From Gracilaria domingensis (taxonomy: Eukaryota; Rhodophyta; Florideophyceae; Gracilariales; Gracilariaceae), in NCBI GenBank assembly GCA_022539475.1, contig VCMS01000314.1, positions 1-63,192 on the forward strand: a stretch of 63,192 nt of DNA, in the 5' to 3' direction. The notes beneath the pieces were generated by a model that was not told the DNA's origin, did no database searches, and saw only the letters and a list, made by a program, of their open reading frames with translations. This document shows positions 987-52,583 of the stretch, piece after piece (the stretch's first letter is position 1; each line of letters begins with the position of its first letter). The position numbers and the translations under genes are program-made.

Positions 987-1014
987 AAATGGGCGTTCTC
1001 CCGGACTTTAGAAG
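987..1014 (+). other. Degraded primer-binding site of element A
   Basis: Directly after the LTR a garbled version of the primer site seen intact in B, C and D can be recognised: pieces TTCTCCCG, GACT and TTAGAA occur in the right order with extra bases between them. The intact form is TGGTCTCCCGACCTAGAA. Confidence 0.5.
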
Positions 1015-1499
1015 TCGCGGCGTACAGCAAGTTGGTTTCTGATCAGATTTCCGGTTTGCCGGTTCGTATCTGTCCTGAGATACCACTACACAGTTCTACT
1101 GGAAGGCTTGCCGACAGACGTCTGTTAGTACTGCCTTTCCTCATTTGCGGTTGGTGTTTGGACACGGTTTACTAACCGGTGGGCAACTTACCTATTCACG
1201 TAGGTGTGATCCCAGTCGTACGGTTGTTGTCAACCCGTTTTGGTGTGTCTACCGTTCCCAGCAATCTGGTCGAATCAGCCCTAATTCCGATACGGCTGTT
1301 CCGTTGTACGGTCGCTCGGTCCGATTGTCGGTAATCGTCACTCGTGTCGAGGACGCTACACTCATCGAAGCGTTAATTGTGTTTTGCTTTGTTGCTTCCC
1401 AGTTTTCTGCGTTGTATCTCGTCGTGGACGATGTGTCGGGCAAGCTGCTCGAAGCCCCTACGAAGTCTCGCTCCGTTGGCTCGGCTTGCCCCCACGTCT

Positions 1500-3550
1500 C
1501 GGGTCTGTCCTGAACCCCTACAAAGGGTGATGCGAAAGAAACGCGGAAAACCGAAACAGCCGTGACAAAGTCGTCTGACGCCCCAGGCTGGGCCCGCATC
1601 TGCTCCTTTGGAGGGGCAGATTACCCCTGGCTCGCGTGCCGAAGGATGCGCTCGTAAAACGATTGGAACTCAAGTCGCTAGTGCTTGAGGCTCAGACTGC
1701 TTTCATGAGGAGTTCTCATGAAGCCACCTCGTGTTCCGAGGTGCGACACACTTCGTTTGAAGGTTGACACAGCCCTCAAACGAGGTGTATCAGAGATCTG
1801 CGATTTACGAGGATGTTAATGCCCTCTTGGAGTCTTCAAGGATATCCCAGTTTTCACCCGAGGAGGCTAAACACGAAGTTCATTCGGGATCCTTGCCGTT
1901 TTGAGACGTTAGAGACCACCCATCCGTGAGGATGACGGCCCTGCTGCCGGCCTCTGCGGATGATCTCATGTAGCCACGTTGACCGGAAGCTCCCGAAGAG
2001 TCGCTCTAAGAAGAGGAAGTCGACGAGTATGACTCGGATTCGTCACAGTCTCTGGTATTCAAAACCGCTCGGCGGAGTTCCCTTATCATCGAGCTCGTTC
2101 AAGTGACGGTGAACGTCCGCTCGTTCTACGCGTCGCGGAGATTCTAGGTCCACCTATTGGTGTTGTTGGTACCGGAAACGAGGGCGAAAGCACTCAGGCT
2201 TTGAGGAAACTGGACCGACGAATCCCTTGGTTCAAAAAGGTGTTATCTTACCCGAGCTATTACCGTTTGAAGATTGCAAGTCTGAACCGGACGCCCCGTT
2301 GGCCACGGTTAAGTGAAAGGGAAACTGCATCAAACGCGGATTTCCTTAACCTTTCGCAACCAGTGTTCACTGGGAGGAGTCCCAGTTCTGGTGCTTGACT
2401 TTCGTTCACGCGGTGTTAGCGGAAAAGCTGACATCCCGGCAATGAGTTGACGGGGCAAGCTTATGTTGCTTACCGTTATTTTCTACGGGACTCGCTGAGA
2501 TCAGTTATAACTCTGTAAAGAGTTCATCTTCGCGCCGTCTGAAGGACGGGCAACCCTGCTGGCCGAAGCAGATGCATATTTGTTGCGCTCCGTATCACAA
2601 ATACCTCTATCGAGGAAGCAATCAACCGCGTTGCGGGAGACGAAAACAACGGCCCGAAAGGAGTCGGAAACCGAGTACTCGGACGCCTGAATTAAGGCAT
2701 TCCACCGTGATGTGGTCCAATGGTTACTCTCAACGAAGCGCTGTACGCTGTTTATCAGACGGATTGAATCCGGCTATTCGCCACTCTGGTGGCCCAGCCA
2801 ACCGGAAAGACCGAAGAAGACTACCTATCTGGAGGGTAGTCAGTACGCGAAGGCGGAGGAGACGCCGTTGGCGCACGCACGGATACCGGTTTCAACCAAA
2901 GCGTTGACTCGAAGGAGGGTTGCGTCATCGGCTTCACTGCCCTACCCGCAGACTTTCTGGTCACGATGTGGATACTTACAACTCGCACAGGTGGACCTGG
3001 ATCTATTCGGACTACGGAGTTGCCTTACTTCAGAAGCCTCGTCGAAGGACGGAAGATGTGCGCTGCGTTACGCAGACCGTCCACGCGTTCCGCGGTCTCA
3101 AGGACCTTAATGCCAGGAGAGTCGTGTACAGCGACCTGCGTTGGTGCACCCAGCGAACGGTTGAAGTTCCAAGACCCAGCGGAGTTCCGGAAAGGGACCA
3201 ACCTCTGATCTGTTCACGTGTTACAACCACGTGTCATGCAGCCCGAACTGCAACCCTTCGATGAGGAAATGCCCACGCGTGGCAATTTTGAAGCGACTGA
3301 CCCCCGCCGAACAGGGCGTCGTGCCGTTAACCGCAGTATCTGCGTGCGAAGGTTGAGTACCCCGGTAGGTGTCTGCTGCAGAATTGGCTGCGTACGGCAC
3401 TCTTAGGTTCGACCCAGCGTCAATGTTTCACCGGCTCAAGCCTGCGGCAACCGCGTTGCGGGTAGTTCTGTCGCTGTTTCCACAGGAATCTGTGAAGATG
3501 CCTGCGCACAGACGCCGTTCCCGTTAGAACGATGGAACTCAGTTAAACTG
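1500..3550 (+). pseudogene. gag of element A, shattered by indels
   Basis: No reading frame is open for long, but pieces matching the Gag of C and D appear in order across all three frames: a coiled-coil piece near 1,810, a Lys/Ser-rich patch near 2,010, the LLSYRYYRL block near 2,240, the DQYNSVRGSS block near 2,495, the STRLNKAFHR block near 2,670-2,700, and a gag-end-like CAGTTAAACTGAG near 3,540. Gag would form the particle core. The frame switches roughly every 15-40 bases, far more than in any other gene here, which points to sequence error at least as much as to decay. The ends are approximate. Confidence 0.6.
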
Positions 3551-4550
3551 AGTACGGGAGTCCTCCCAATGGAGAGCGCCCGATCGCAGGTCTACGCGCC
3601 CGAGGCGTCACCCGCCTCGCTTCCCAGGTCAAAAATCCTTCGAAAACAGACCGTTCTTAGACGTGGACTCTACCACCATCGGGGGGTTACGTCGCCCGTG
3701 ATACGTTCAGGAACAACCGGATCCCGGATCGAGTCATTGCTGGCCCGAAGCGGAAACACAAGATATTTTGCTGACCTTGGCCTATCCACCAGTATTGGTG
3801 CGTCCATCTCCTCTGTCTTGGATACATGGCTGGCCCAACTCATTGTTGGAGTCTTACACCCGCCGAAGTCCGTTTGTCGAAGTCCGCTCTGGACCCGTCA
3901 TACGTGGCAATGCTAACAATAACCCCGTTACAAACGGCTGAAATGTTCACGATTGTCAGGATGGAACTGCCATCGAGCAGGGAGAATCAGATGGTCTGCA
4001 ACGTCTCGCTAGCCGCCTGCTCATTCTAGGGTTGTGACTTCTGCGCTGCGACAGATATGTCGAAGCCATACGACCGCGTGCGCGTGAAGTGGGAAATGGA
4101 AGATGGTTCGGTTGTACCGATTGTTCGTCGCTCATTACGCCGAGCGTCAGCTAAGCTGGTACCACTACCCGCTCCTCTACAGGATTCCTCACCTCCGAAG
4201 GAGTCGCCGAAGCTCGCGTAGCGCGTGCAATTTCTACTCCGCCAGAATCCCAGGTTTGGGTGATGTTACTGCCGCACCGCGTGGTTTGCGGGTGTTCAAC
4301 CATTGAACTCGTTATACGAGAAGTATCAGGTCGCGTTGGCGAACGGAGTTGTTCAAATCAACAGCGAAAACCCCTTTCGGGTTATGTTGGCCAACTTTGG
4401 CAAAAAGCCCCAGTATCTGGTGAAGAACCAAGTAATTGGTACTGTCTTACCGCACCCTACGGCGCTTATCCCTACAAAGGTGACTGCCGCCGAGATGCTC
4501 GGGCTTGCTGAAGAACGCACTGGGGTGCTTCACCCTAAGGAGGGGGAGGA
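3551..4550 (+). pseudogene. Protease and protease-RT spacer of element A, frameshifted
   Basis: The first part corresponds to the aspartic protease of C and D: a broken LRRPWIRS-like start near 3,670 and a SVLDTG-like active-site block near 3,815, with frame changes between them. From about 4,303 the frame becomes clean and encodes the conserved spacer (YQVALANGV, then the LANFGKK-like and LPHPTALIPTK blocks). It then shifts by one base near the first internal polypurine tract (4,531-4,550) into the frame used by RT. Aspartic proteases of this family cut Gag-Pol inside the particle; this copy could not do so as written. Confidence 0.65.
4531..4550 (+). promoter_or_regulatory. Internal polypurine tract 1 of element A
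   Basis: The bases CACCCTAAGGAGGGGGA (4,531-4,547) are identical over 17 nt to the 3' polypurine tract at 11,660-11,676. Such tracts resist RNase H and prime plus-strand DNA. A role as an additional plus-strand primer is inferred; the tract also encodes a Lys-Glu-Gly-Glu peptide in the pol frame of the sister elements. Confidence 0.55.
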
Positions 4551-7500
4551 GAATCGTCGCGCTCGTCTGCGTCGGACCCGCCCCAGACGGTTGAACACAC
4601 GAATGACTCGGAAGCTAGGACCGTTCCTACGAGTTATGACAAGATTGACCCTATTAAAGAGTTAGAAGAATTGAATCTCGGTCATGTACCGGTTTCACAC
4701 CGTGAGAAGTTGCGCAACATGTTGCGAGAGTTTACACCAATGTGGGATGGTTCCCTCGGAGAGGTTTCAACTACGGAACACCGGATTGACCTCCTGCCGG
4801 AGACCAAGCCGATTGCTCAGCACCCTTACAGGGCAGGCCCGAAAGCACGGGAAGAGGAAGAGTTTCAGATCAACAAAATGCTCCGCGCTGGCGTGATAGA
4901 ACCGGCCCAGTCGCCGTGGGCATCTCCAGTTGTACTGGCTCCGAAACCCGATGGGTCCTGGCGCTTTTGTATCGACTATCGTCGCTTGAACGATGTCACC
5001 GTCAAAGACGTGTACCCCATACCTCGTATGGACGAGTATATCGACTCGCTTGGCGATGCTACTGTGTTCTCCACTTTGGATGCAAACTGGGGTTACTGGC
5101 AAGTACCAGTTAGACCGGAAGACCGTGACAAGACCGCGTTTACCTGTCATTCAGGACTATACCGCTTTAAGCGTATGCCGTTCGGGTTAACGAACGCCCC
5201 CGCTACGTTTCAGCGTGCTCTGGACATTTTGTTAGCTCGCTTCAAATGGCGGAGTTGCTTGGTATACCTCGATGACATCATCGTGTTTTCCAACAGTTTG
5301 GACGATCACCTCGAACATGTTCGGGAGATAATGACCGCTTTGCGGGATGCTGGAATTACTCTCAAATTGAGGAAGTGTGAGTTTTTCACTGACTCAGTGA
5401 AGTATCTGGGCCATGTCATACGTCCAGGACGGTTACTGATCGAGGAAGCTCGCGTGAAGTCCCTCAAAGAGGCGAAGCACCCCACTACACAGACAGAGCT
5501 ACGCTCCTTTCTGGGGCTATGCAACGTTTATAGACGGTTCATTTCTCGCTTCGCAAAGATCGCGGGACCGCTCAACGAACTCCTGAAGAAGGGACAACCG
5601 CCCAAATTGGGACCACTTACCCCCACGCAAGTGGAGGCCTTCAACTCTCTTAAAGAGGCTGTTACCACGGCACCCGTGTTAGCGTTACCAAAGAACGGGT
5701 TGCCGTACACCGTGGATACGGATTCGAGCGATTACCAAATTGGCTGCGCTCTCTTTCAGACTACACCCGAAGGGGAACGCAAACCAATTGGCTATTGGTC
5801 TCGTACACTCAACGTGCACGAGCGCAATTACTCGGTATCCGAGAAGGAGTGTCTCGCCATGGTATGGGCTTTGCAGACTCTACGACCATATCTTATGGGT
5901 GTGCACTTTACCGTCAATACGGACCATTCCGCCTTGCGTTGGTTAATGTCAGTCACGGAGCCTTCCGGACGCTTAATGCGTTGGCGTCTTCGGCTTGCCG
6001 AGTTTGACTACGAGGTCACCTATAAGAAGGGCTGTTTAAACGCGCAAGCGGATGCTCTTTCACGTCTAGGAACTGAAGGTGAAGCTTTACCCGTCGATGA
6101 CGAGGATGAAGATATCCTCTGTTTCCTCATGGAGGAGGGTGATGAAGACTACGACATCGTGTCGGACGACATCTGTGATGATTTGCTCGTCGCAGACGGT
6201 GAAGACCCGGAATCCGGTACATTCGTCCCCATTACTCCAGAAGAGCTGGTGCGGGAACAGCAATCTGACCCGTTCTGTACGAGGATACGCTCCCAAATTA
6301 ATGGTGGTGCTAACATCCCGTTCGGGGTCAACACACAAGGTTACCTCGTCAGAGTGGTTCGTTCTGCCCCACAGATTGTGGTTCCTCACTCCTTACAAAC
6401 AAGGGTATTGCATCTCTCGCATCACTCGCGGATGGCTTCCCATCCGGGTGCTAAGCGGTTATACACGACACTGCGTCAGGATTTCTACTGGCCCGCGTTA
6501 GCGTTGGACTGCTACACCACCGTGAAGGCGTGTACACATTGTGCTCGCGAGCGAGTTAAACAGCGTCGCCATGCGAAGAAACTAACACTTTTCCCCGCAA
6601 GGGCGCCGTTGGAGTTTATTGCCATCGATATACTCGGTGAGTTCTTGCGTACTTCCCGAGGAAATCGGTTCTTACTCGTTATTACGGATAGATTCAGTAA
6701 GCTAGTCCGGACAGTTCCGTTGAAGTCGATTACAGCACGCAGTGTTGCGGAGGCATTCGTTCGCCATTGGGTTATGGTCTACGGTCCCCCGGTCAATCTC
6801 CTCTCAGATAATGGTCCGCAGTTTACTGCACGTTTCTTCCAGGATGTCTGTCGGATACTCGACGTGAAGAATCTCTTCACGACGACGTATCATCTCCAAT
6901 GCAATGGGCAAGTCGAACGGTTTAACCGGACAATGCTCTCCGCGTTGCGGGCTTATACAGTTGAACACCCGAAAACTTGGGATCTCTACACGGATACCGT
7001 GACGTATGCGTATAATACGCAAGTTCACAGAGTAACTGGTTTATCGCCCTTTGAGCTCGTGCTCTCACGGACACCACCGCCAGTTGCGGTTGAACCATCA
7101 GCAAAGCTGGATACGTCACCGTCAATACGGGATCACTACTTGCAATGGAAGCAGTGGTTATCCGCAATGGTACCTGTCGCCAGGTCGTCAATGGCGAAAG
7201 CACAACACGCTTACAAGCGGAACTTTGATGCCCGGGTACGGAGACCACTACCGCCACTGAAAGTGGGAAACCTCGCCTTTGTCAGGAAGGAGTACTACAA
7301 CCCTGAAAAGGAGCGGCGCTACAAGCTTTCACCCATCGCTGATGGTCCGTACCGCGTTGTCAGCGTGAACAAGGACACAGCCGTACTGGAAGTTGGTGAC
7401 GCTCATGAGCGTTTCTCCCGCGATCGCGTGGTAAGAGGTCCAACCGTTCACACGGAAGTACTTTCGGACACACAGCAGGAAGCTGGACAGACAGAGAACC

Positions 7501-9080
7501 GAGGAACCTCGTCGCAGAACACTACACCCACTGTGGGGCTCCGTCACCCAACACGGGGTCTCGCAGATGTACCGATTATATCGTCGCAAGCCGAGGTATC
7601 GGAACATACACCGCTGGTGAAATCGCGTTTCACAGCGTCTGTTACACCGTCAACTGACGTGATGACTGCTCCCCGTAACGCTCCACCTAAGGAGGGGGAG
7701 GGGAATTCACGCGTTGTCGCGGAGAGTGAGTCACCGGTGTCGCTACCGTCGCAGCACCGTGATTCACGGGAAAGTAATGAAGCAGAGGCAGAGTCGCCTC
7801 AGGACACCGTCGAAGACGTAGTTGCTACGGACACCACTGTCAGTGGGAAGGATCACCCGCTGTCGCGTGTTGAAGTCGCGAAGGACGCGCCGCAGTCGGC
7901 CGCTTTCGCGCAGAACTCTGCGGAGGATACACAACCTTCCACGAAGGATCGCGACCTTCAGGAAGGACACCGCACGCAACGAACGGACTCAAGGTTGTCC
8001 CAGGATACTGGTATTGCTCACCCATCTGGGGAATTGTCACAGGAACACGCGCCCATCGTCGCACGGACGCAGGACGCGGAGCATGCTCTCGTTCGCGAAG
8101 TTTCCACGGCAAGGCCGGAAGTTGATCAAGAACACCCGACTTCTCGGCAAAGCAAGGCTACAGCGAAGCTGGATACTGTATCACGGAGTATTCCGGACGC
8201 GCAGTCGCCGCATTCCGCCGATGACGACAGCCGCAAACCGCCTTCGCAGGCGCGCTGTAGGGTAGTCACGGCAGATCCCGGTATCGTTGACACTGCAGAG
8301 CAGGAAGAAGAGAAGACGCTCGCTGAAGCGAAGATCAAGCACCCCGGTTCGGGTAATGGTAGTGTACCGTTGCACCCAGCTTTGGGGAAGTCGCAAGTCG
8401 CACGTCATGACGTTTCACCAAGTCATGACGGCGCACCGCTCGTTGGAGATACAGATTACAGCCCTGATTTAGGGAAAACGCAAACTGCATCTGCAGGAGC
8501 GCTTGCGCACCACAAATCTTGGGGTACGCAGCGCGCGCCACACAATGGGCCAATCACAGCTCGTGGCAGTGCCACCACCGCGAAACGTCGCGTGTCGTCA
8601 CGTGAACCGGCACGTGCCGTGGTGAACAATCCGCCTCCGCGTTCGCCTTCACCGTCAGGACGGGAACTACCGCATGAACTAGCCGTTCGCGGACCCGCCG
8701 AAGCGGCGAAGCTGCTTGAGAAGACCCGGATTCCGGAAGCGACCACTCAGCGGAGGACACACTTACCGCCGAAGGCGTCAGGAGAAACTCACAGCACCGC
8801 TGGTGACTATGTAACGGCACCGCCGCGGCACGCTGACGACCCTTCGCAGGAAGAGCTCGAGCGGGGAGTTTACTCGAAAGAGTTCGTTGTCGACCACATA
8901 GTGGGGCACAGTTGGAACCCGAAGGGGTATGTTCAGTACCAGGTACGCTGGTATGGCTATCCGCCGTCGCGGGACTCGGACGAACCCGTGGAGCACCTAC
9001 CCCGATCGAAGATCGTGCAGTACCACCGTCGTACTAACACGGCGTTGCCGGCTAATCTACATCAAGCGATGGTCGGTTAA
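4551..9080 (+). CDS. pol: Element A pol: reverse transcriptase, RNase H, integrase, chromodomain
   Basis: This single open frame has no natural ATG; it is the 3' part of a Gag-Pol read-through. The following residue numbers count from position 4,671. RT covers about 35-300 with YLDD at 199-202 and a GYWQVPV block near 141. RNase H spans about 345-465 with VDTDSSD, SEKECLA, NTDHSAL and ADALSR. Integrase has the HHCC zinc site (H581/H585, H591, C621, C624) and the catalytic D653, D713, E749, the last two separated by 35 residues as in retroviral integrases. The usual HPQ before the Glu is HLQ here. A Ser/Thr/Glu-rich linker of about 450 residues follows, then a chromodomain in the last 70 residues (VRWYGYPP, EPVEHLPRS). 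Chromodomains of this kind guide integration to marked chromatin. Apart from the upstream indels the frame is intact. Confidence 0.9.
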   Translation, partial: ESSRSSASDPPQTVEHTNDSEARTVPTSYDKIDPIKELEELNLGHVPVSHREKLRNMLREFTPMWDGSLGEVSTTEHRIDLLPETKPIAQHPYRAGPKAREEEEFQINKMLRAGVIEPAQSPWASPVVLAPKPDGSWRFCIDYRRLNDVTVKDVYPIPRMDEYIDSLGDATVFSTLDANWGYWQVPVRPEDRDKTAFTCHSGLYRFKRMPFGLTNAPATFQRALDILLARFKWRSCLVYLDDIIVFSNSLDDHLEHVREIMTALRDAGITLKLRKCEFFTDSVKYLGHVIRPGRLLIEEARVKSLKEAKHPTTQTELRSFLGLCNVYRRFISRFAKIAGPLNELLKKGQPPKLGPLTPTQVEAFNSLKEAVTTAPVLALPKNGLPYTVDTDSSDYQIGCALFQTTPEGERKPIGYWSRTLNVHERNYSVSEKECLAMVWALQTLRPYLMGVHFTVNTDHSALRWLMSVTEPSGRLMRWRLRLAEFDYEVTYKKGCLNAQADALSRLGTEGEALPVDDEDEDILCFLMEEGDEDYDIVSDDICDDLLVADGEDPESGTFVPITPEELVREQQSDPFCTRIRSQINGGANIPFGVNTQGYLVRVVRSAPQIVVPHSLQTRVLHLSHHSRMASHPGAKRLYTTLRQDFYWPALALDCYTTVKACTHCARERVKQRRHAKKLTLFPARAPLEFIAIDILGEFLRTSRGNRFLLVITDRFSKLVRTVPLKSITARSVAEAFVRHWVMVYGPPVNLLSDNGPQFTARFFQDVCRILDVKNLFTTTYHLQCNGQVERFNRTMLSALRAYTVEHPKTWDLYTDTVTYAYNTQVHRVTGLSPFELVLSRTPPPVAVEPSAKLDTSPSIRDHYLQWKQWLSAMVPVARSSMAKAQHAYKRNFDARVRRPLPPLKVGNLAFVRKEYYNPEKERRYKLSPIADGPYRVVSVNKDTAVLEVGDAHERFSRDRVVRGPTVHTEVLSDTQQEAGQTENRGTSSQNTTPTVGLRHPTRGLADVPIISSQAEVSEHTPLVKSRFTASVTPSTDVMTAPRNAPPKEGEGNSRVVAESESPVSLPSQHRDSRESNEAEAESPQDTVEDVVATDTTVSGKDHPLSRVEVAKDAPQSAAFAQNSAEDTQPSTKDRDLQEGHRTQRTDSRLSQDTGIAHPSGELSQEHAPIVARTQDAEHALVREVSTARPEVDQEHPTSRQSKATAKLDTVSRSIPDAQSPHSADDDSRKPPSQARCRVVTADPGIVDTAEQEEEKTLAEAKIKHPGSGNGSVPLHPALGKSQVARHDVSPSHDGAPLVGDTDYSPDLGKTQTASAGALAHHKSWGTQRAPHNGPITARGSATTAKRRVSSREPARAVVNNPPPRSPSPSGRELPHELAVRGPAEAAKLLEKTRIPEATTQRRTHLPPKASGETHSTAGDYVTAPPRHADDPSQEELERGVYSKEFVVDHIVGHSWNPKGYVQYQVRWYGYPPSRDSDEPVEHLPRSKIVQYHRRTNTALPANLHQAMVG
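7685..7704 (+). promoter_or_regulatory. Internal polypurine tract 2 of element A
   Basis: ACCTAAGGAGGGGGAGGGGA lies in the linker between integrase and chromodomain and repeats the core of the 3' tract. The same site in B (19,249-19,265) and C (27,154-27,174) carries the same motif. Confidence 0.5.
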
Positions 9081-9239
9081 CACACGTCGCTGGAGACGGA
9101 AGCTTATCGCGTACCGCGCACGAACGGTTCTACGAACCACAACACTCAATCGAGGAACGCTGCGACAACCTCCAGAGGAGTACTGTACCGCTACTCGCGT
9201 GGTGAGGAGACACTCTATTGAGAGGACAGTTGAAGTTCG

Positions 9240-9440
9240 AATAGTAACGCCCTCAGGAAGAGGAGAAGTTAAGAAGCACTCGCAAGAGGAAGAAGACTCT
9301 ATGAAGAGGAAAAGGAAGCTCAGAAGAGAAGAAGCACTCGTAAGAGGAAGAAGCACTCGTAAGAGGAAGATCACCCCGGAAGGGAGAAGTTAAGAAGTAT
9401 ACACCTTGGAAGAAGGGAAGAAGTCTTGAGATCAAGAGAA
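9240..9440 (+). repeat. Purine-rich repetitive tract between pol and the antisense gene of element A
   Basis: About 200 bases downstream of the pol stop are mostly A and G, with repeated units such as GAAGCACTCGTAAGAGGAA (two adjacent copies near 9,325-9,365, with variants upstream). On the other strand this forms a pyrimidine tract just after the stop codon of the antisense gene. Comparable tracts lie after pol in B, C and D. Confidence 0.6.
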
Positions 9441-9553
9441 GTTCACAGTTTACTGGTCAATGTTACTATGTTGTGGCTCGCTAGTCGAGCACACAACGGC
9501 CAAGTTATTGGGTATCAGCTAGGAAGGACTCCCTAGAGGAGAAGCTGCACGAG

Positions 9554-11662
9554 TTACTCGGATTCCTGCTGGTCTCCAGCGTTCGCAAGCTGCGCAATTA
9601 GCGCGTCGCGCATCTGCGAGACGTCGCCAGATGTCGAGTCGGAGATACCAGCCTCGCTGAGGAATTGAGCTATCACGGCAGCCCGTGCTTCGTCGGTAAG
9701 TCTCGCGTTCGCGGCTTCGTTCGGCGTAGCCGACGCCGCCATCGCAGGCGAAGCAACATTCTCCGCTGGAGTCGGAACCGCCACAGGCGTAGGAACAGGA
9801 GCCACTACGGGCCCAGGAGCCGCTAGAGGCGCAGAGGGAACATTCACCGGAGTCGGGAAGATCGCGTTGACACCCGCTTGGGGACCTGGCACTGCTGAAG
9901 CAGGTACTGCCCCCTCCACCGGAGCTGCTGCGAAGTTGTCATCGCCATAGTCGTCACCGTCATCGGGAGCGTCATCAACCATGATGTTTTGATCCCCGAC
10001 AGGGTGAAAGAACTCATCAGTCATGATGAAACCCGTTGGGTGCCCCGGAGGGATGACTCGCTCGGCATTCCGAAGAAGTTCCGCCTCGGCGTTGGTAATC
10101 GGCACCCGTGTCCAGGGGTCGTAGTAGATGTAATCACCCGACAGTGGGGACCTGCGACCCGGAGACCGGTCAATGGCAAGATCGCCTTCGTCGCGCGCGC
10201 TCTGCGAACGAGGAACCTGGTTCCAGTCGACTCCATCAATCACTCGCAAGAGGCATACCACTTCCGAGAAGTTTCCATTACCGCCAAGCGGGATAGTGAG
10301 ATCCAAGGCTCGGATGAGTTGCCGCAAGCGCGGGGGAATGAACCACAGTCGATACTGGTCATATACCTCGTTGAGGAGGTACACCGCTGTTCGCGCCGCC
10401 CACTCCGTGAGGACAACGCTCCACCATCCCGTAAACGGGTTTGTCACGAGCCTACTACCCACATACGTGAGACAGGGGGGGAGTTCCACGTAACAGCCAC
10501 GGCAGACCTCCACGGACGCCCACACAAAGGAGAGAGGAACATATCTCCCACGCATGTGGCGCGGACGAATCCGGTTTGACTCCGTGTTTTGATACGGGAT
10601 AAGGTAACCCCATCGGGAGCGGGCACGTCGTTCGGGACGGATCATTGTTTGAAGGTAGTTGGACCGCGGTACGCGTGGGAGATATCGAAATTCTGCACGC
10701 AGAAGCGGACGGGTCCAGCACAGGAGATCCTGGTGAACGGGGACGTTCTGGTAACGCTCCACCCCACCGGCGAGCCGGGCAAGATTCTCTCCATATTGGA
10801 TTTCGCCGAGTGTTCGGAAGAAGGCCACGTCGAAACGGAAGTTCGCCGGAATCGGGCGCTCAGAGTAGGTGCGATACATTCGCATGTGCGCTACGCGGAC
10901 CATAGCCGCTCGTGCGGAGTTGTGCGACTGACCACGATTGTGGACGAGGGCGTTGGTAGGCACGGTAATCCGGTAATGCCAGTCGAACGTCACCGTCATC
11001 CAGACGTGAACGCCTCCTGGGAGGTGGCCGCTGCCATCAGCATACGCCTCGACGAGGGAACGGTTAGTCACGCCTTGCGGGTGGAACCAGGGAGCCCGTA
11101 AGAACGGTGTTGGATTTGTGCGCGGGTCGACGTTGTCGAGTTCGTCGTACGACGCCCAGGCGCCCGCATGCGGGTTGACAACCTGTTGAACCGGAACGGC
11201 AGGAGCAATCCAGTTCCACTGCGGTACAGTCGCCGGAGGCGGAAGTTGACCACCCGTTTGGGGAAGAGGGGCAGTATGGAATCCCGGATTGACCGGTTGA
11301 GGGAGCGGAACGCCAGCGGAAGCCGGCTGTGAAGGAGGCACTCCAGAGGAGGAAGGGTGTGAAACACCAGCAAACCCACCAAAGTATTGGTTTTGGGACC
11401 CGCCAGGCGGTTGATCGTCACCCTGATTGGGGTTAGGCATCGCGGAAGCGGCGCGAGGAAGAGAAGAAAGCGCTGGAAGCGAGAGAGGAGGAAGCGAACG
11501 CCGAGGTATCGGAGGAGACACTACCGCAGTACGCGTGGAGAGGGGTGGACCGGAGTCGCCGTTAGAAGAGACCGGGGAGGCTGGATTGGAGACCGTCATG
11601 CCGACGTGCTTAAATACACTCCAGAGGAGGAAAGCGAAACCGCTCGCGTGGTCGTCTCGCAC
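9554..11662 (-). CDS. Antisense ORF of element A, unknown family (702 codons)
   Basis: This frame runs opposite to pol, tail to tail with it, and begins 17 bp from the 3' LTR. The protein has a Pro/Ser/Gln-rich N-terminus (about 1-185), a dense core (about 188-555) and an Ala/Pro/Val-rich tail that ends in a short helical segment. The core is shared with the ORFs at 32,043-33,857 and 42,617-44,506. Landmarks are APWFHP, LPGGVH, RTLGEI-YG, LRAEFRYL, GYLIP-QN, RGC--ELP-C, WAAR, IPPRLR, LDL and YYDPW. There is no signal peptide, clear membrane span, zinc knuckle or polymerase/protease motif, so it does not look like Env, Gag or Pol. Met1 may not be the true start: Met75 begins an MPNPNQG motif that recurs in the other two proteins as MNP-Q. 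I cannot assign a function. Confidence 0.75.
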   Translation of the reverse strand: MRDDHASGFAFLLWSVFKHVGMTVSNPASPVSSNGDSGPPLSTRTAVVSPPIPRRSLPPLSLPALSSLPRAASAMPNPNQGDDQPPGGSQNQYFGGFAGVSHPSSSGVPPSQPASAGVPLPQPVNPGFHTAPLPQTGGQLPPPATVPQWNWIAPAVPVQQVVNPHAGAWASYDELDNVDPRTNPTPFLRAPWFHPQGVTNRSLVEAYADGSGHLPGGVHVWMTVTFDWHYRITVPTNALVHNRGQSHNSARAAMVRVAHMRMYRTYSERPIPANFRFDVAFFRTLGEIQYGENLARLAGGVERYQNVPVHQDLLCWTRPLLRAEFRYLPRVPRSNYLQTMIRPERRARSRWGYLIPYQNTESNRIRPRHMRGRYVPLSFVWASVEVCRGCYVELPPCLTYVGSRLVTNPFTGWWSVVLTEWAARTAVYLLNEVYDQYRLWFIPPRLRQLIRALDLTIPLGGNGNFSEVVCLLRVIDGVDWNQVPRSQSARDEGDLAIDRSPGRRSPLSGDYIYYDPWTRVPITNAEAELLRNAERVIPPGHPTGFIMTDEFFHPVGDQNIMVDDAPDDGDDYGDDNFAAAPVEGAVPASAVPGPQAGVNAIFPTPVNVPSAPLAAPGPVVAPVPTPVAVPTPAENVASPAMAASATPNEAANARLTDEARAAVIAQFLSEAGISDSTSGDVSQMRDALIAQLANAGDQQESE

Positions 11663-11678
11663 CCTAAGGAGGGGGAAA
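11660..11678 (+). promoter_or_regulatory. 3' polypurine tract of element A
   Basis: CACCCTAAGGAGGGGGAAA sits directly before the 3' LTR (TGTAG). This is the standard plus-strand priming position. Confidence 0.8.
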
Positions 11679-12494
11679 TGTAGTGCAACGCTATTGCGGG
11701 ACTCCTTCGCTGATGCGATTCATAACATGCACGGCGATGCCGGGAGGTGGTGGCACACAGTATGAGTAACTGGTGAGATCAGCCCATTCTTGGGTATACT
11801 TAATATTAGAATTAGTGTCATGAGGCGCACGGCTTAGCCGGTGGGTCACACACGTGTGGGAAGTTTGCACCCATTAGTTGGGGTATTTTAGATGTTTATT
11901 CTAGATATTTTCGCTACACCGCTTGACAGTGGGTTGGCACTCTACACTACTTAGTAGGTTGAGCTGCACCCATTGTCGGGGAAGTAAACGGACTAACCGA
12001 GTGTTCGGCTCTGATGTTTCACCCTTGGTGACCGATATCCTCCTCCCGGAGAGTCGACACCTTGTGCAGGGCTCATCATCCGCCTCGCGGCATCATTAAC
12101 ACCACTACCGCTTTCGCGTGTTTACTTTGTGTGTGATTTCTTTATTTCTGTCCCTGTTATACAGGTAGCACTACTTGGTGTACCGGTGCATACCGTTCGT
12201 GGCTCGACACACTCGCGTGGGCTATTACCGCTCTCGCGTGTCATCGCCCCACTCGTGGGTACCGCGTGCTACGCACGTGACGCTACTGCCGACTTGTGTC
12301 GTGTGTTCTCTACCGCTGGACGCTTCTTCTTCGCCGCTTCGCTCCCTCCATTACTTGGGAAGGGTCGACCCCGGTCTTACACCCGGCATTGCCGTGTCGT
12401 ACCTGTGGGAGCGCTCTACTGCTGTGCTTGCCTCCTGAGAGAGGGTCTGAACCGCCTTTGCGTGTCTTTCCCCATCGCTGGGTTTTGCACAACA
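11679..12494 (+). repeat. 3' LTR of element A
   Basis: The 816-bp LTR starts TGTAGTGCAACG and ends CACAACA. It is the cleaner of the two LTR copies of A. A TATA-like AGTATACC on the reverse strand near 11,795 lies about 130 bp before the start of the antisense gene and could serve it, but this is only a guess. Confidence 0.85.
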
Positions 12495-12765
12495 TCTTCC
12501 TCTGGTTTCCCTTCGTTTTCCCCCTTTTGCCTAGGGCCTACACCGCTCTACGGTACCTTCCTTCTCAACCATTCCGTCGCTTCTCGCCGGATTCCTGGAT
12601 CAGGCCCGTTCACCCCTCAACCTCCGTAGGTATATCCCGTACCACGGGCGGTCTTACACCCGCACTATCCGTGTTCGGAGGGCTCACCACTGAGTTCACC
12701 TCGTCTAGAGGGCAAGGACTCGAACGCCTTGAGAGACGATCCCATCGCTGGGGTTTTGCTCTACA
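12495..12765 (+). repeat. Right part of the 5' LTR of element B
   Basis: The pyrimidine-rich start continues the LTR left at position 181. The end (CATCGCTGGGGTTTTGC, then TCTACA) matches the ends of the other LTRs and is followed directly by an intact primer site. A related LTR is seen in reverse at 34,390-35,045 (shared blocks ACGGGCGGT and ACCCGC-CTATCCGT). Confidence 0.75.
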
Positions 12766-12767
12766 AG

Positions 12768-12785
12768 TGGTCTCCCGACCTAGAA
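12768..12785 (+). other. Primer-binding site of element B
   Basis: TGGTCTCCCGACCTAGAA lies 2 bases after the LTR and is identical to the sites of C and D. Its complement reads as a tRNA 3' end: CCA, discriminator A, acceptor strand TCGGGAG and T-stem CTAGG. A C1-G72 pair with A73 is the hallmark of eukaryotic tRNA-Tyr, so that tRNA is the inferred primer. Confidence 0.75.
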
Positions 12786-12981
12786 CGGGTTGGATTCTTT
12801 CTCTCGTTCCCGTTCTTGTCGAGGAGTCTCACGATTAGTGATCAATTGGTTTTTGGAAGCTACTGTGGAACAGTGGACTCTCTAGAGTGTTTTATTTGTT
12901 GTTCGTTACTTACTCTTTGGAGTATCGACACCTCTCGTTGTTAATTTGATCTTACCGCAGTTCGGTACACCGTGGCCCGGT

Positions 12982-15078
12982 ATGGCGCCACCTGCGCCGA
13001 ACTCTCGAAACGGTGTGGCCAGAGATGCTGGTGTGCCTCCGCCTAGGCCTCCGCGTTCTCGCGCCTCCGTACCTGCAAGGTCGCCTGAGAATGAACAGGT
13101 TCCGGAACCCCGGAGAGCTTCGTCAGTCACGTCGGGTCCGATGGCCGCTTCTACGGCAGGAGCTCCGCCCGTTACGGATACTCCGGCAACGGAGAGACCA
13201 AACGATGTGGTTGAAACCCCTGGATACTCGTAACTCGAGGCTCAACTGCGTGTCAGTCAACTCGCGCCAAACTCGTTGTTCGAGGATCTGCAGTATCTCA
13301 GACGGAAGCTTGACCAAGCTGAAATCGGAGATCCGACCAATGACATTCGTGTCTTACGTCAAGACGTGAATTCCATTTTGGAAAGTCTGGGTGCACCAGC
13401 CGCTTTTGTTCAAGCTTACCATTCCTCTATTCAAGAGCATCGAGCTGAAATCGATCGCCTAACCACTCGTTTGTCTACTCTCGAAGAGATCATCCGGATG
13501 GATAACGCATCTGATGCGAAGAATGCTAAGGAAGAAGCCTCTAAGCGCTCGGCACGCCAGTCTCCGTATCACGGAAATCGACGATCCAAAAACGAACTCC
13601 GTTACGACTCGGATTCGTTTAGTTCCAATTCTAGCGTTCGCTCTGCGAAATCTACTTCATCCAGTTCTTCGGACAGTGAAGAAGACCGAGAACGGTATGT
13701 GAGTAGATCCCACGAGACGGAGTCGAAAGCGACATATGCCACTCAAGGAGTTATTCGCTCTCGCGAGAAAGGTAGACGTCATCTTGGACTCAAGGAGTTG
13801 AAACAAACGAATCTCCTCTACAGGAAGCTGTTGTCGTATCGGTATTACCGATTGGGCGATTCATCGTCAAGTCGCACCTCGCGAAGCACCGGTAAGGTGA
13901 AGGACCACATCAGAAGACTGAATATCGTCTTTACGAATAAATTCGATGGCGAAGATCCAATTCTGGTACTGGACTTCCTGGCCCGCTTTGTGCAGGAAGC
14001 CGACATTCTCGGTATGAACGAGGCGCAACCGTTTCTCGCTTTACCCTATTTTCTGTCAGGGATGGCTGAAGATCAGTTTAACTCGGTCCGAGGGTGGTCC
14101 CGTGCATCTGATGGAGGTGTCAGCTGTTGGCTGGAAGCGCTCCAGTACCTCCTGAGGTCCTATGCAACAGGAAGCGCGATTCACAACGCGACGTTCGCTC
14201 TACGAGATACTAAACAGAAGACTGAAGAGACCGAAACGGTTTACTCAACTCGGTTGAACAAAGCGTTTCATCGCTGTGGAAATGTGTACTCCGCTCAGGA
14301 GAGATGCACGATGTTCGTGGATGGGTTGGACCCTTCTATCAAGGCTTTGGTGGCGCGATATTGCGAAGGGAAACGTAGGATTACGTATCTGGAATTGGTC
14401 CAGTACGCCCAGGCTGAAGGCGAAGTCCTCCGTGCTCGGCGCCCGCCGAAACCCCGTCGCTCAAGAGCGTTGCTCGTCAACGAGTCATCTCCATCTCTTT
14501 CCTTGGAACGTGGAAACTCCGTGAACCCGGATATGGATAACGTCCACTGCGTTGGAAGTACTCCCGATTCGTACGGGTCTTCTGATATTCCGTCGTCGTC
14601 GACTCCGATCTCGGAAGGTGACTCCGCACTCTATATGAGAGGAACACGGGTACAGGCCGCTCCACTCGCTTAAGCGACCAACTGCAGCCGTTTCTCACGC
14701 CCATGATGGGTGAATGCGCAACCGCAACGACTTCCAGATGGTAATCGATCTTTCGATAAGTCGGTGACGACCATCTGTCATATTTGTTACCGACCCGGTC
14801 ATATTGCACCTTTGTGCATGTTGCCCGCTCGGGAGTTTCCGAAAATTATCGAGTGGTATGAGTCCTTGTCACCAGCTGACCGTGCTCGTGTTCCGAGTAA
14901 GAATTATGAAGAGCAAAGGGCCAAGTTTGGCAATCCTGTTACAGGACAGAACGTTCGAACTGAGCAATCTCGGAACCAGGCTGAACAGATAACTGTGATC
15001 AACCCCGAACCCGGGAATTCTGTTTCGCACTCTGAGCAGAGTTTGCCGTCGCCGGCCAACCCCGCTCAGAAAGACTAA
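12982..15078 (+). pseudogene. gag: gag of element B, three in-frame stops
   Basis: Read in one frame from ATG 12,982 the sequence gives a complete Gag: a Pro/Ser-rich N-terminus, a coiled coil (from about 13,235, with DIRVLRQDVN), a Ser/Asp/Glu-rich stretch (about 13,600-13,700), the capsid-like block from about 13,790 to 14,430 with STRLNKAFHRCGN, and a CCHC knuckle (CHICYRPGHIAPLC) near 14,775. Stops at 13,231 (TAA), 14,671 (TAA) and 14,704 (TGA) are base changes, not frameshifts. The end reads Gln-Lys-Asp-stop, like Gln-Lys-Asn-stop in C and D. Gag forms the particle and binds RNA; this copy cannot make it. Confidence 0.85.
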
Positions 15079-18000
15079 ACTTGGGAGTTCCCCCTGCGGG
15101 AGGGGCGTCTTCTGAGCCGAAGTCGGAGACGCCCGAGGCGCCGCCGCTTCGCTCCCAGGTCACTTTCCTTAAAAGAAAGATCCTTGCGAGGAAGATGGCT
15201 CAATCTGACGTGGACTCAGAGCTTTTAACGGTTCTCCGTCGTCCGTGGGTACGGTACCGAAATTTCCCTATCCCGGATAGAGTCCTTGTGATGGCCAAAA
15301 GGAATTATAAGGTTTACGACGAATTCGGCTTATCAAACCAGTTTATGGTTCGTCAACTGTCTGTTTTAGACACGGGCGCTGCGCCCAATCTCATTCCCTC
15401 TTCGTTAGTGCCCCCGGCACTTCGGGAATTCGTTCGCTATGGTCCAGGTTTGGATATTGCTGACGCGAACAATAACCCGTTGCCCACGGTTGGTTACTTA
15501 ACTCTCACAGTGAGACTTGGCACCCACGTGGTGAAACTTGACTTTGTTGTCTGAGAATCACTCGCTGCACCGGCTATACTCGGTTGTGATTTTTGCGACC
15601 GCTTCGTCGAAGCGATACGCCCAAGGGCGAAAACCGTGGAAATGGAAGACGGTACAACCATTCCGATCATTCGGAAGCCGTTGAGGGGCGCAATCCGGAA
15701 GCGCGTCCCGTTACCTGTGGCTCAGGAGGTTCCAAACGTGGATCCGAAATCAATAAAGCTTCGCAAAGCGAAATCCGTTTCAATCCCGCTAGAATCCCAG
15801 GTGTGGGTGCAGTGCGTCTCCAAACAACATGTAATTCGACTAGTTCAACCGTCTTCATCGTTATACGATTAGCGACAGCTCGCTTTAGCTAATGTTGTTG
15901 TTTCTATCGAGCCCGATCAACCTTTCAAGGTACTGGATGCCAACTTTGGCAAAACCACTCAGTGGCTAGTCAAACACTAGGTACTGGATTCGGTCCTGCC
16001 GCATCCGAAGGCCCTCGTACAGACGAGAATCGCAACGTCCGAGGTTCTCGGTGTGCCCGAAGCTAAGGAGGTGGAGGTGCGTCCTGGAAACTCGGTTTTG
16101 TCGGAATCCTCCAGAAATGGAAACTCCGCCGTACCGGAAGCAATCGCTACTGAAGAGGTGAACCTAGTTAGTTCGGGCCACGAACGACCGTTCATTCCGG
16201 TTAAATCAGCGCTACCCCCTGGCACAGAACAGACGAATCCTGTTGAGGAATTAGAGAAGTTGAATCTGGACCATGTCTCAGCGTCTCATCGCGAGAAGTT
16301 GCGAGACATGCTCAGAGAATTTACTCCCATGTGGGACGGCTCTCTTGGAACAATTGGAATTACGGAGCACCGTATTGATCTGCTCCCAGATACTCGCCCA
16401 ATCGCGCAACACCCGTATCGGGCAGGCCCGAAAGCGCGGGAAGGAGAAAAGTCTCCAGTCGAGAAGATGCTACGTGCCGACGTAATTGAGCCAGCTCAGT
16501 CGTCATGGGCATTGCCCGTTGTACTTGTTCCGAAGTCGGATGGATCGTGTCGTATTTGCATCGATTACAGGCGACTCAACGCCGTTACCGTCAAAGACGT
16601 ATATCCGATTCCACGGATGGATGAGTACATCGACTCGCTGGGAAGCGCCAGAGTATTTACCGCCCTTGAAGCCAATTGGGGTTACTGGCAGGTTCCAATT
16701 CGAAAGGAAGATCGCGACAAGACCGCGTTTGTATGTCACCAAGGACTGTACCGTCTCAAACGGATGCCCTTCGGGCTAACGAATGCTCCCGTTATGGTTC
16801 AGCGCGCGACTGACATTCTGTTGGCCAGATTCAAGTGGAAGACTTGTCTTGTGTACTTGGACGACATTGTCGTACTTTCCAAGAGTATGGATGAACATAT
16901 GTTCCATGTGAGGGAAGTGATGGAGGTTCTGCGTGACGCAGGTGTTACTTTAAAGCTCAAGAAATGCGAATTCTTTACCGACTCGGTGACCACATTATCC
17001 GCCCAGGGAAACTCTCGGTCGACGAGGTAAGGGTGAAGTCGCTGAAGGAAGCGAAACACCCGACAACTCAAACGGAACTCCGATCATTTCTCGGTTTTTG
17101 TAATGTCTACCGTCGGTTCGTCCCGAATTTCGCTGATACTGCAGCTCCTCTCAACTCTCTCCTCAGGAAAGGACAGCCAGTTAAACTGGAACCATTCGGC
17201 AATGCGGAAGTATCCGCCTTTTCGTCGTTAATCGACGCTGTTACGTCTCTGCCGATTTTGGCGTTACCCACTCCAGGGCTTCCATATGAAGTTGATACAG
17301 ATTCCAGTGACCACCAAGTGGGGTGTGCATTGTTTCAAGTCTCGAAGGAAGGCGAGAGATGTCCAGTTGGATACTGGTCTCGTTCATTGAACGTGCGTGA
17401 GCGTAATTACTCAGTCTCTGAGAAGGAGTGTCTCGCCATCGTTTGGGCTCTGTCTACCTTAAGACCCTATCTCATGGGAACCCATTTTCAGATACATACC
17501 GATCATTCGGCTCTCGGCTGGATTATGGAGATCTCCGAGCCGTCGGGTGGGCTCATGTGTTGGCGTCTCCGTCTATCGGAATTTGATTTTGATGTCCGGT
17601 ACAAACGGGGCACCCTGAATATGCAGGCTGATGCGCTTTCCCGCTTAGAAACGTCTGGAAAAGCAGAACCTGTCGACGACGACGACATACCATGCTTCTT
17701 GGTGGAAGACTGGGAGGAAGACTCCGAAATTACGGATGACGTCTGTGACGATATTCTCGCCACAGAAACGGCCGAGCCACCGCCTGGCTTATTTGAACCC
17801 ATTGCCGCTGAAGAAGTAATACGTGAACAACACGGGGATCCTTTCTGTACTCAGATAAGGGACCGACGCAACGGGGGATTCAAGATACCCTTTCTAACCA
17901 ACGATCAGGAATTCCTTGTTAGGATTGTTGGGCCACGTCCTCGAATTGTGGTTCCACACTCCCTACAATGGAGGGTTCTCCATATATACCACTATGCAAA

Positions 18001-19593
18001 GATTGGGGGACACTCTGGTGGCAGGAAGTTCTATCTAACTCTCCGAAGAGACTTTCATTGGCCAGCTATGGCATTCGACTGCTACGCAGTACGCCGTTCA
18101 TGCACGGAATGCGCCAAGAACAACGTCAAACTCCGACGAAATCCGAATTCGATGACGCTGTGCCCAGCCCGGGCTCCTTTGGAGTTCGTCGCTATCGACA
18201 TTCTGGGCCAATTAATTCGAACCGCACGCGGTCACAGGTACCTCCTGGTTATCACGGACAGGTTTTCGAAGTTAATGCGAGCGGTTCCGTTGAAGCGGAT
18301 CACTGCAGCAGCAGTTGCACAAGCATTTGTGACGCATTGGGTCTTCACTTACGGGCCACCCGTTAATCTGCTTTCAAACAATGGCTCGCAGTTTGCGTCA
18401 AAGTTCTTTATGGACGTATGCCGTATCTTGGATGTCAAGAATTTGTTTACAACAACCTATCATCCCCAGTGTAATGGGCAGGTAGAACGATTTAATCCTA
18501 CAATGCTTAACGCATTACGATCCTATGTTGCGGATCACGCAAAGGATTGGGACTTGCACACCGATGCTACTACGTACGCGTATAACACCCAGGTGCATCG
18601 GGTAACGAAGCTTTGGCCGTTTGAACTCGTTCTTTCGAGAATACCGCCACCGGTAGCAATCGAATCACAAGTGACGCTAGCGTCTTTCCCGTCACCACGG
18701 ATGTACAAGGACACCTGGAAAAATTGGTTAACCAAGATGGTACCGGTAGCCCGGAAGGCCATGGAAAAGGCACAGCTTACGTACAAACGTAATTTCGATC
18801 GCCCAATTCGCGGCACATCAGTGGTGGTCGAGCCCAACAGCTTTGTGTTCTTTCGGAAGGAGTATTATAATCCTGACAAAGAAAAGAAACACAAGCTCTC
18901 TCCCATCGCTGATGCACCATATCGCGTCATTTCCGTCAATCCGGATACCGTCGTACTCGACGTTGACGGACGTCATGCACGAATCTCGCGTGACCCCGTT
19001 GTGCCCGCCCCGACGTCACCCACCGCAACCGGGCCCACCTCAACCAATACCCAATCAGGTGATCCTCAACAAGAGGCAGAACCGTCGCGTCCGGCGATTT
19101 TTTCGCACCCGGATCGAGGATTAATTGATCTACCTACAGTAGGTCCTTCTGACCACAGAAATGAACTTCCTCCTACTTGGACGAATTCCAACGACTCTGC
19201 ACCAGTATTTACAAGAGTAACCCTCCACCCCATCTCCTGATGGCGCCACCTAAGAAGGGGGAGGATACCGCAGCTGCTGCGAAAGGCACTGACGCTCCAG
19301 TGTCGCCCGGTTCCCCAACCACGGGAAATGTGATCCACGCTGACAATCCAGTCGCTCCCGTGGGAGAATCTAGTGGCACAGTTGCCTTGCCGCACCCCAA
19401 CCGTGAGGATCCCGCCGTATCGGTCTCCGTTACCACGGAACGTGCCTGCGAGAGGCGCGACGCTGCCGCAGCAGCAGCTACCCACTCTGGGACCTCTACC
19501 CGCTTGAACTCGCGTATCCGTGCTGAGAAGCATAGCCGAACTGTGAAAACGGTTTCCGCTGATCCGGACCAGCCGCTGCACGCGGAAGAATAG
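15066..19593 (+). pseudogene. pol: pro-pol of element B, several stops and a 10-base deletion
   Basis: The frame is -1 relative to gag and open across the junction. The protease has the DTGAAPN active site near 15,370. In-frame stops lie at 15,552 (at a conserved Cys), 15,870 and 15,978. RT is intact over 16,250-16,980 with YLDDIVV. A 10-base deletion near 16,988, compared with A, then shifts the frame. RNase H and integrase are open to 19,240, with the HHCC zinc site near 18,000-18,120. The second catalytic Asp of integrase is Asn here (LLSNNGSQF near 18,370). After another shift near 19,238 the linker runs to a stop at 19,593. It resumes beyond element C at 31,035. Confidence 0.85.
19249..19265 (+). 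promoter_or_regulatory. Internal polypurine tract 2 of element B
   Basis: CCTAAGAAGGGGGAGGA lies in the integrase-chromodomain linker at the same place as the tract at 7,685 in A. A weaker copy of the first internal tract is at 16,063-16,078 (CTAAGGAGGTGGAGGT). Confidence 0.45.
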
Positions 19594-19928
19594 CATTGCA
19601 ACCTTGAAAGGGAAAGCCTCGTGAACGAGTTGTGCTGAGTATTACCACTCATTTTGGATTCCCTTGTGAGACTTTTAATGCTTTCTTGGAAGCCGACACT
19701 CTACAGTGTGAACCACATCGCGTGTGGAGACTTGGAACTCTGGCACCACTGCAAGAAGTGCAATCTCCGTGACACGGGGCCTGGCAGAACCACGCGCGTG
19801 CCACGCGACGCACGTTACAACGTGGAAAGCCCTAATGAGCGGTCGGCGACCTTTCGGGAACGGATGGCGGAGCACGGCACGCGCACGATTGTCGTGGTCG
19901 CCAATCTGTGGCGTGGAGCCAATCAGAG
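19594..19928 (+). other. Linker remnant of element B up to the insertion point of C
   Basis: This stretch has no open frame of note. By position it is the decayed Ser/Glu-rich linker of B pol. It ends with CAGAG (19,924-19,928), the left copy of the target duplication of element C. Confidence 0.5.
19924..19928. repeat. Target site duplication of element C, left copy (CAGAG)
   Basis: The 5 bases CAGAG before the 5' LTR are repeated exactly after the 3' LTR at 31,035-31,039. Five bases is the usual size for Ty3/Gypsy integrases. Confidence 0.9.
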
Positions 19929-20790: not shown

Positions 20791-20793
20791 AAC

Positions 20794-20811
20794 TGGTCTC
20801 CCGACCTAGAA
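20794..20811 (+). other. Primer-binding site of element C
   Basis: TGGTCTCCCGACCTAGAA begins 3 bases after the LTR. It is the same 18-mer as in B and D and complements the inferred tRNA-Tyr 3' end. Confidence 0.8.
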
Positions 20812-28826: not shown

Positions 28827-28899
28827 AAGTTACCCCCCCCCCCCCCTGTGGGACATTCGCAACAGCCTCCAACGAGGTATTGCCTACTGAGGAGGGGGA

Positions 28900-52580: not shown

Positions 52581-52583
52581 CTT

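What the first reader, a model, noticed from the sequence alone, without database searches (positions are those of the whole stretch)
9554..11662. A long antisense gene of unknown family is conserved in three of four Gypsy elements
A (9,554-11,662), B (32,043-33,857) and D (42,617-44,506) each carry, between pol and the 3' LTR, an open frame of 600-700 codons on the strand opposite to gag-pol. The proteins share a core with the same ordered motifs (APW-H, LPGG, RT-GE--YG, LRAEFRYL, GYLIP, ELP-C, AAR, PP-LR, LDL, YYD-W); B and D match at 76 of 118 residues in one block by hand count. The spacing of invariant Trp, Cys and Pro shows selection on the protein. It has no Gag, Pol or Env motif. Antisense ORFs are known in some plant Gypsy elements and antisense proteins in some retroviruses, but I know of no protein like this one.
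Basis: partly seen in the sequence, partly recalled or inferred. Interest (0 to 1): 0.9.

Follow-up and report, generated by a model that had tools for sequence, protein, structure and literature searches.

The report
Antisense accessory gene in algal retrotransposons
Jumping genes of a red seaweed carry, back to front near one end, an extra protein gene that selection clearly preserves but that matches no known protein family; land-plant jumping genes have a similar backward gene, but a different protein was described there.

Summary
Three long antisense ORFs encode one protein family, but the "B" copy (32,043-33,857) belongs to element C, which element B (19,929-31,034) interrupts; B has no such gene. 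The window is from a red alga; a hypothetical protein of Gracilariopsis chorda is 65% identical to one family in this genome. Core dN/dS is 0.10-0.21 in 8 of 9 pairs (0.35 in the ninth), and in four pairs tested no other frame is as low. In 45 of 48 flanked copies the pol tail lies downstream in opposite orientation. The best TATA-like match lies 48-51 bp from the polypurine tract in 9 of 9 representatives (strong in 7); three gene-less copies lack it. No Pfam, NCBIfam, PHROGs, PDB-sequence or PDB-fold match was found, though two models are confident (pTM 0.82, 0.85). Antisense accessory ORFs are known in plant (Grande, RIRE2, Retand) and fungal elements, so the kind is known; the protein family, predicted fold, lineage and chromodomain-element setting appear new. 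Best guess: a trans-acting, probably nuclear, regulator of the element, expressed antisense from near the LTR edge. That function is inferred, not shown.

The parts
9554..11662 (-). aORF of element A, 702-codon open frame; stop-to-stop frame runs to 11,719, inside the 3' LTR; conserved second ATG (M-P-N-P-N-Q) at 11,440, first ATG after the TATA-like box at 11,599
32043..33857 (-). aORF of element C (not B), 604 codons; first ATG at 33,857, conserved second ATG (MNPHQ) at 33,740
42617..44506 (+). aORF of element D (element lies on the - strand); first ATG after the TATA-like box at 42,653, conserved second ATG (MNPNQ) at 42,764
11609..11616 (-). TATA-like box TATTTAAG of aORF A, 51 bp from the PPT edge
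   Evidence: position worked out by hand from it
33869..33876 (-). TATA-like box TATATAAG of aORF C, 50 bp from the PPT edge
   Evidence: position worked out by hand from it
42633..42640 (+). weak TATA-like site of aORF D (6 of 8 positions), 48 bp from the PPT edge
   Evidence: position worked out by hand from it
182..12494 (+). element A: LTRs 182-986 and 11,679-12,494 (89% identical), inserted in the 5' LTR of C; chromodomain pol ends at 9,080
1..34389 (+). element C, cut by the window start: 5' LTR pieces 1-181 and 12,495 onward; gag-pol ORFs within 13,276-19,240; body resumes at 31,035; 3' LTR starts at 33,938
19929..31034 (+). element B nested in C: LTRs 19,929-20,790 and 30,173-31,034 (99% identical), TSD CAGAG; no aORF
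28990..30120 (+). segment of B without a long ORF that stands where other members of its family carry a 610-codon aORF
41599..53556 (-). element D: LTRs 41,599-42,573 and 52,584-53,556 (99.5% identical), TSD GTGTC

Best explanation
Shown: the ORFs are a real protein-coding accessory gene of a red-algal group of chromodomain Gypsy elements, under purifying selection, antisense to pol between pol and the 3' LTR in every copy where pol could be seen, and ranking in divergence like pol among the window's three. Inferred: it is transcribed antisense from a promoter near the LTR/PPT edge, and its product (short N-terminal tail often with a basic IPR-type motif, basic Trp-containing globular core, acidic low-complexity linker, conserved C-terminal tail) works in trans, probably in the nucleus, to regulate transcription, silencing or chromatin state of the element, as has been proposed for the plant antisense proteins. 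Relatives that lack the gene could then use the protein of sister copies. The confidence given is for the inferred mechanism; for 'real selected antisense accessory gene' it is about 0.95.
For: Core dN/dS 0.10-0.21 in 8 of 9 pairs; frame control in four pairs. Pol tail downstream in opposite orientation in 45 of 48 loci, not found in 3; LTR 17 bp (20 of 20 A loci) or 44 bp (8 of 8 D loci) upstream of the ORF; a further 37 of 37 aORFs paired with an integrase are antisense to it. Best TATA-like match 48-51 bp from the PPT in 9 of 9 representatives; 7 of 9 have at least 7/8 matches between 30 and 65 bp, where 1000 base shuffles give a mean of 0.34 and at most 3. Three aORF-less copies (B, L076, L078) score at most 4/8 there. 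Identity ranks alike for pol and aORF core in the pairs A-C, A-D, C-D (61.8/72.7/73.1% and 41.5/46.1/50.9%). Core pI 8.0-9.6, C-terminal part pI 4.1-4.3, no membrane-like stretch. 65% identity to a Gracilariopsis chorda protein over nearly its whole length. Among the 39 integrases nearest to B's, 11 have an aORF and 11 the alternative segment.
Against: No transcript, localisation or binding data are available here. The TATA-like box starts only 5-20 nt before the first following ATG in 8 of 10 representatives, too close for an ordinary start site about 30 nt downstream (recalled) unless translation begins at the second ATG; yet in those 8 a basic IPR-type motif (read by eye) lies between the two ATGs, which favours the first. 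In the 610-codon family an in-frame ATG precedes the box. The site is weak in D and L071 (6/8). The gene-less controls are close relatives of one another. The pattern would equally fit a structural or assembly factor acting in trans. The C-terminal tail matched no nucleic-acid-binding domain convincingly, and no fold match of any kind was found.
Confidence: 0.38

Rival explanations
1. A structural or assembly protein of the particle or pre-integration complex (an extra capsid, packaging or import factor), made from an antisense message and supplied in trans.
For: The gene diverges somewhat faster than gag but ranks like pol; the core is globular with a confident model; gene-less copies exist beside those with it.
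Against: An antisense message is separate from the genomic RNA, an awkward route for a stoichiometric particle protein (inference); no Gag-like domain in the protein; no fold match to a capsid.
Confidence: 0.22
2. A self-limiting or trans-dominant control protein (working like Ty1 p22, recalled) that keeps copy number in check.
For: Antisense expression from the element's own end is a simple route to copy-dependent control; the segment that replaces the gene in B has 39 genome matches.
Against: A self-limiting gene is easily lost, yet it is kept with low dN/dS in the A and C groups. For most of the 39 copies the loss of the gene was not established.
Confidence: 0.15
3. A host or viral gene captured by an ancestor of these elements and kept as a passenger, or a degenerate second mobile element.
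For: The protein has no recognised relative among gag, pol or env; antisense orientation fits insertion of a foreign unit.
Against: All 48 loci with flanks have a pol tail or an LTR match nearby, but these were the best matches only, so an element-free copy could have been missed. No relative confirmed in viral contigs or prokaryote genomes, each scanned with two peptide patterns only. A mere passenger would not keep dN/dS near 0.15. Capture long ago followed by use is not excluded and is compatible with the best explanation.
Confidence: 0.15
4. The functional product is the antisense RNA (for example a source of double-stranded RNA), and the open frame is incidental.
For: Antisense transcripts without coding capacity exist in other elements (PMC7264820, passages).
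Against: For the pair L029-L057, codon-position differences of 151/103/309 and dN/dS 0.15 in the aORF frame against 0.29-2.30 in the other five frames.
Confidence: 0.04

Closest known systems
Antisense additional ORFs (aORF-3R) of plant Gypsy elements: maize Grande gene23, rice RIRE2, Silene Retand ORF4
   Same: Between pol and 3' LTR, antisense to gag-pol, conserved across copies and species; own promoter and nuclear localisation reported for gene23 (PMC7264820 and PMC11963269, passages read; the original gene23 paper was not read).
   Different: Retand is a non-chromovirus lineage whose aORF mostly carries Transposase_28 (PF04195); here pol carries a chromodomain and PF04195 has no match in the whole genome at E<=10 (none of that call's 14 control genomes passed the family's cut-off, so it has no positive control).
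Fungal Boty antisense ORF (Botrytis, Sclerotinia)
   Same: Same position and orientation according to PMC7264820 (passage).
   Different: No sequence comparison was made here; the Boty protein was not fetched.
Antisense genes of deltaretroviruses (HBZ, APH-2)
   Same: Antisense gene of a retroelement; HTLV has an antisense promoter inside the 3' LTR (PMC7264820, PMC11963269, passages).
   Different: HBZ and APH-2 are bZIP regulators (recalled); no bZIP or other Pfam domain was found here.
Hypothetical protein BWQ96_10156 of Gracilariopsis chorda (P0002)
   Same: Same family, 392 of 600 aligned positions identical to the 610-codon aORF of this genome.
   Different: Annotated only as a hypothetical protein; its genomic context could not be examined here.

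Membership tests
Antisense additional ORF of Gypsy elements (aORF-3R class) | Lies between pol and the 3' LTR | tested here: met
   A, C and D in the window; 45 of 48 loci with flanks show the pol tail downstream, 3 show none
Antisense additional ORF of Gypsy elements (aORF-3R class) | Opposite strand to gag-pol | tested here: met
   45 of 45 loci with a detected pol tail; 37 of 37 aORF-integrase pairs
Antisense additional ORF of Gypsy elements (aORF-3R class) | Present in most copies of the family | tested here: inconclusive
Antisense additional ORF of Gypsy elements (aORF-3R class) | Protein conserved by selection | tested here: met
   core dN/dS 0.10-0.21 in 8 of 9 pairs, 0.35 in the ninth; frame control in four pairs
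Antisense additional ORF of Gypsy elements (aORF-3R class) | Transcribed from its own promoter | not testable with these tools
   Only a positioned TATA-like box; no RNA data
Antisense additional ORF of Gypsy elements (aORF-3R class) | Nuclear product (reported for gene23) | not testable with these tools
   No localisation data; only a basic IPR-type motif read by eye
Retand lineage aORF (TRP28) | Transposase_28 domain PF04195 | tested here: not met
   0 matches in the genome at E<=10 (no positive control); 0 of 14 members in hmmscan
Retand lineage aORF (TRP28) | Non-chromovirus Gypsy element | tested here: not met
   Chromo domain PF00385 in pol of A and B; matching pol tail beside D and C copies
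Env or Env-like protein | Transmembrane segment | tested here: not met
   Highest 19-residue hydropathy mean 1.2-1.4
Gag | Known Gag domain or CCHC knuckle | tested here: not met
   No Pfam match in the aORF proteins; gag is a separate ORF in B, C and D

The most novel reading that the evidence does not exclude
A protein superfamily with a previously unseen fold, found so far only in sequences that are red-algal where named, that gives Gypsy retrotransposons an antisense-encoded, trans-acting regulator (for example an anti-silencing or LTR-activating factor), evolved independently of the plant Grande/Retand antisense proteins and so showing convergent evolution of antisense control genes in LTR retrotransposons.
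Probability: 0.3. Interest if true: 0.75.

Novelty: new variant of a known kind. Interest (0 to 1): 0.58.

Why it matters
Antisense accessory genes of Gypsy elements have been known in plants since the 1990s (references dated 1997 and 1999 in PMC7264820) without a known function. Here a second, apparently unrelated protein occupies the same slot in a group far from land plants. It comes with a positioned TATA-like box and with close relatives that lack the gene: a natural comparison that makes the cis/trans question directly testable. If the fold is new, it also adds a protein family carried in many copies in this genome.

Tried and rejected
Plant TRP28 origin: no match (no positive control). 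Viral or prokaryotic origin: 3 and 15 pattern hits, none confirmed as a relative. SAP/LEM-like reading of the C-terminal tail: one E=0.038 Thymopoietin match and one E=0.0096 Sas-5 match among 8 tails, no such match in 6 more tails; dropped. Remnant of an aORF in element B: best profile score below zero; one tblastn hit with P0010 at E=6.7e-4, 26% identity, is not backed by the profile. TATA box as a part of plus-strand priming: kept only as a minor possibility, because B and two siblings lack it. The wider group of alternative-segment copies (C14 type) as aORF-less: not established, because L075, L077 and L079 show no LTR edge within the 301 bp read; only B, L076 and L078 have the segment confirmed beside the LTR, and the 98% copy on C22 was not read. 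An earlier count gave a TATA score for L078 before it had been computed; one search computed it (4/8). dN/dS results left out of the headline: pairs with L054 gave 0.51-0.90, except 0.26 with L055; L054 shows out-of-register stretches and was not used in the region analysis. The pair L029-L032 gave core 0.35 and a leader value of 4.44 on dS 0.037. Young copies give 0.36-0.62 (D), 0.47-0.67 (C) and 0.19-0.52 (A without L054 and L055), as expected where copies decay after insertion. In the region analysis the A 'pre-ATG' bound was set at residue 93 although the conserved ATG is residue 75, so the A leader values mix leader and N-terminus. One C-tail sub-region of the C pairs had saturated dS.

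Full report
What is there. The window (contig 314 of a 77.9-Mb, 680-contig genome) comes from a red alga: the only organism names among relatives of the protein are Gracilariopsis chorda and Agarophyton chilense. It holds four Gypsy elements; Pfam finds RVT_1, RNase H, integrase and chromodomain in the pol ORF of A, and integrase and chromodomain in the pol ORF of B that was scanned. Self-comparison gives LTR pairs for A (182-986/11,679-12,494, 89%), B (19,929-20,790/30,173-31,034, 99%) and D (41,599-42,573/52,584-53,556, 99.5%). B and D have perfect 5-bp target duplications (CAGAG, GTGTC); A's is imperfect. Six other copies of the C family were compared with the window: all six run from about 19,440-19,928 straight into 31,035-34,389, and carry matches to window 1-181 joined to 12,495 onward. 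So A sits in C's 5' LTR, B sits inside C, and the antisense gene at 32,043-33,857 belongs to C. B has no such gene and no recognisable remnant.

Real and selected. The open frames exceed every one of 300 base shuffles. In four pairs the aORF frame has dN/dS 0.15-0.19, against 1.00-2.56 in four of the other five frames and 0.27-0.33 in the one frame whose third positions coincide. By region, the core gives 0.10-0.21 in eight of nine pairs and 0.35 in the ninth (L029-L032); N-terminal and C-terminal parts are mostly looser. Young copies give higher values: 0.36-0.62 in D, 0.47-0.67 in C. Five of the compared copies carry stops (1 to 5 each), which were skipped. All values are simple Nei-Gojobori estimates, and dS above 1 is imprecise. 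Between the window's elements aORF core identity is 41.5, 46.1 and 50.9% (A-C, A-D, C-D), where pol has 61.8, 72.7 and 73.1% and gag (C-D) 61.8%.

Genome-wide. Searches with the three proteins gave 70, 71 and 73 matches, all lists capped by the tool; 50 of the 70 D matches have no stop. Searches with P0003 and P0010 showed further families, with open frames such as 594, 610, 623 and 703 codons. In 48 loci with flanks (8 D, 20 A, 20 C) the pol tail lies downstream in opposite orientation in 45 and was not found in 3. The D LTR ends 44 bp and the A LTR 17 bp before the ORF. These loci were found by the gene, so they say nothing about elements without it.

Elements without the gene. Element B's LTR is 85-90% identical to that of three copies (L069, L072, L073) that carry a 610-codon frame of the same gene or an altered one (594, 640); both flanks match, but in B the gene's place is taken by about 1.1 kb without a long ORF. 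That segment has 39 matches in the genome. Of 131 integrase matches, 37 have an aORF, 19 the segment and 75 neither in my lists; among the 39 closest to B's integrase the numbers are 11, 11 and 17. For this count I used 46 of the 66 aORF rows, leaving out 20 that look like the D family. Only B, L076 and L078 were seen to have the segment directly beside the LTR; L075, L077 and L079 showed no LTR edge within the 301 bp read, so absence of the gene there is open. The gene is therefore not needed in cis for persistence of at least the B subfamily; supply in trans is the simplest reading, not a proof.

Promoter candidate. Reading in the antisense direction from the PPT, the best match to TATAWAWR lies 48-51 bp away in 9 of 9 representatives. 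At least 7 of 8 positions match, between 30 and 65 bp, in 7 of 9; 1000 base shuffles reach at most 3 of 9, mean 0.34. The representatives include distant members of the A and C groups, and six further near relatives in the same call gave at least 7/8 in five and 6/8 in one. B, L076 and L078 score at most 4/8 in that stretch; they are close relatives and not independent. Against a plain TATA promoter: the first ATG follows the start of the box by only 5-20 nt in 8 of 10 representatives and by 101 nt in two of one family; a basic IPR-type motif (such as IPRK or IPVPRR, read by eye) after it in those 8 suggests translation from that ATG; and in the 610-codon family an in-frame ATG precedes the box. 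In the C group the stretch between the two ATGs gave dN/dS 0.36, 0.44, 0.87 and 0.87 in the four distant pairs, so its coding status is unsettled. The second ATG (M-N-P-N-Q or similar) is also widely conserved, though changed in single copies such as L040.

Known context. In the held library seven searches (listings seen) showed no paper that describes this gene in red algae. [quoted passage not shown] PMC12477816 (passages) mentions accessory genes of algal transposons, none of them this one. Most subscription papers are not held, so absence in print is not certain.

How it most likely works. A positioned antisense promoter candidate near the LTR edge, a soluble multi-part protein without membrane or Gag features, tight selection, and gene-less relatives that persist fit a trans-acting regulator somewhat better than a particle protein, but neither is shown. 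I rate that mechanism 0.38, a structural or assembly role 0.22, a self-limiting role 0.15.

Noticed in passing
window 34,390-34,954: C's body is followed directly by inverted LTR fragments of the same family, so C's 3' LTR is cut or rearranged.
   Followed up: partly
window 182-986 and 11,679-12,494: Element A's own LTRs are only 89% identical although its aORF and pol frames are open and other A copies match its 3' LTR at 97.7-99.1%; an exchange between subfamilies may explain it better than age.
   Followed up: no
window 9,271-9,370: A 19-bp tandem repeat lies in the spacer between pol and aORF of element A; the spacer length varies from 480 to 636 bp among the 19 A loci with a detected pol tail.
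   Followed up: no
window 986-4,700: Element A's gag is only 31-33% identical to that of D and B and has no ORF of 250 aa or more.
   Followed up: no
window 28,990-30,120: The segment replacing the aORF in B has 39 genome matches, many of them with nearly the same score at 82% identity to B, so it has multiplied in its own right.
   Followed up: partly
window 36,836-39,759: ORFs on the - strand with the look of Copia-type pol pieces (recalled motifs; no family search made).
   Followed up: no
window 35,428-36,252: A 274-aa Ser/Pro-rich open frame of unknown nature.
   Followed up: no
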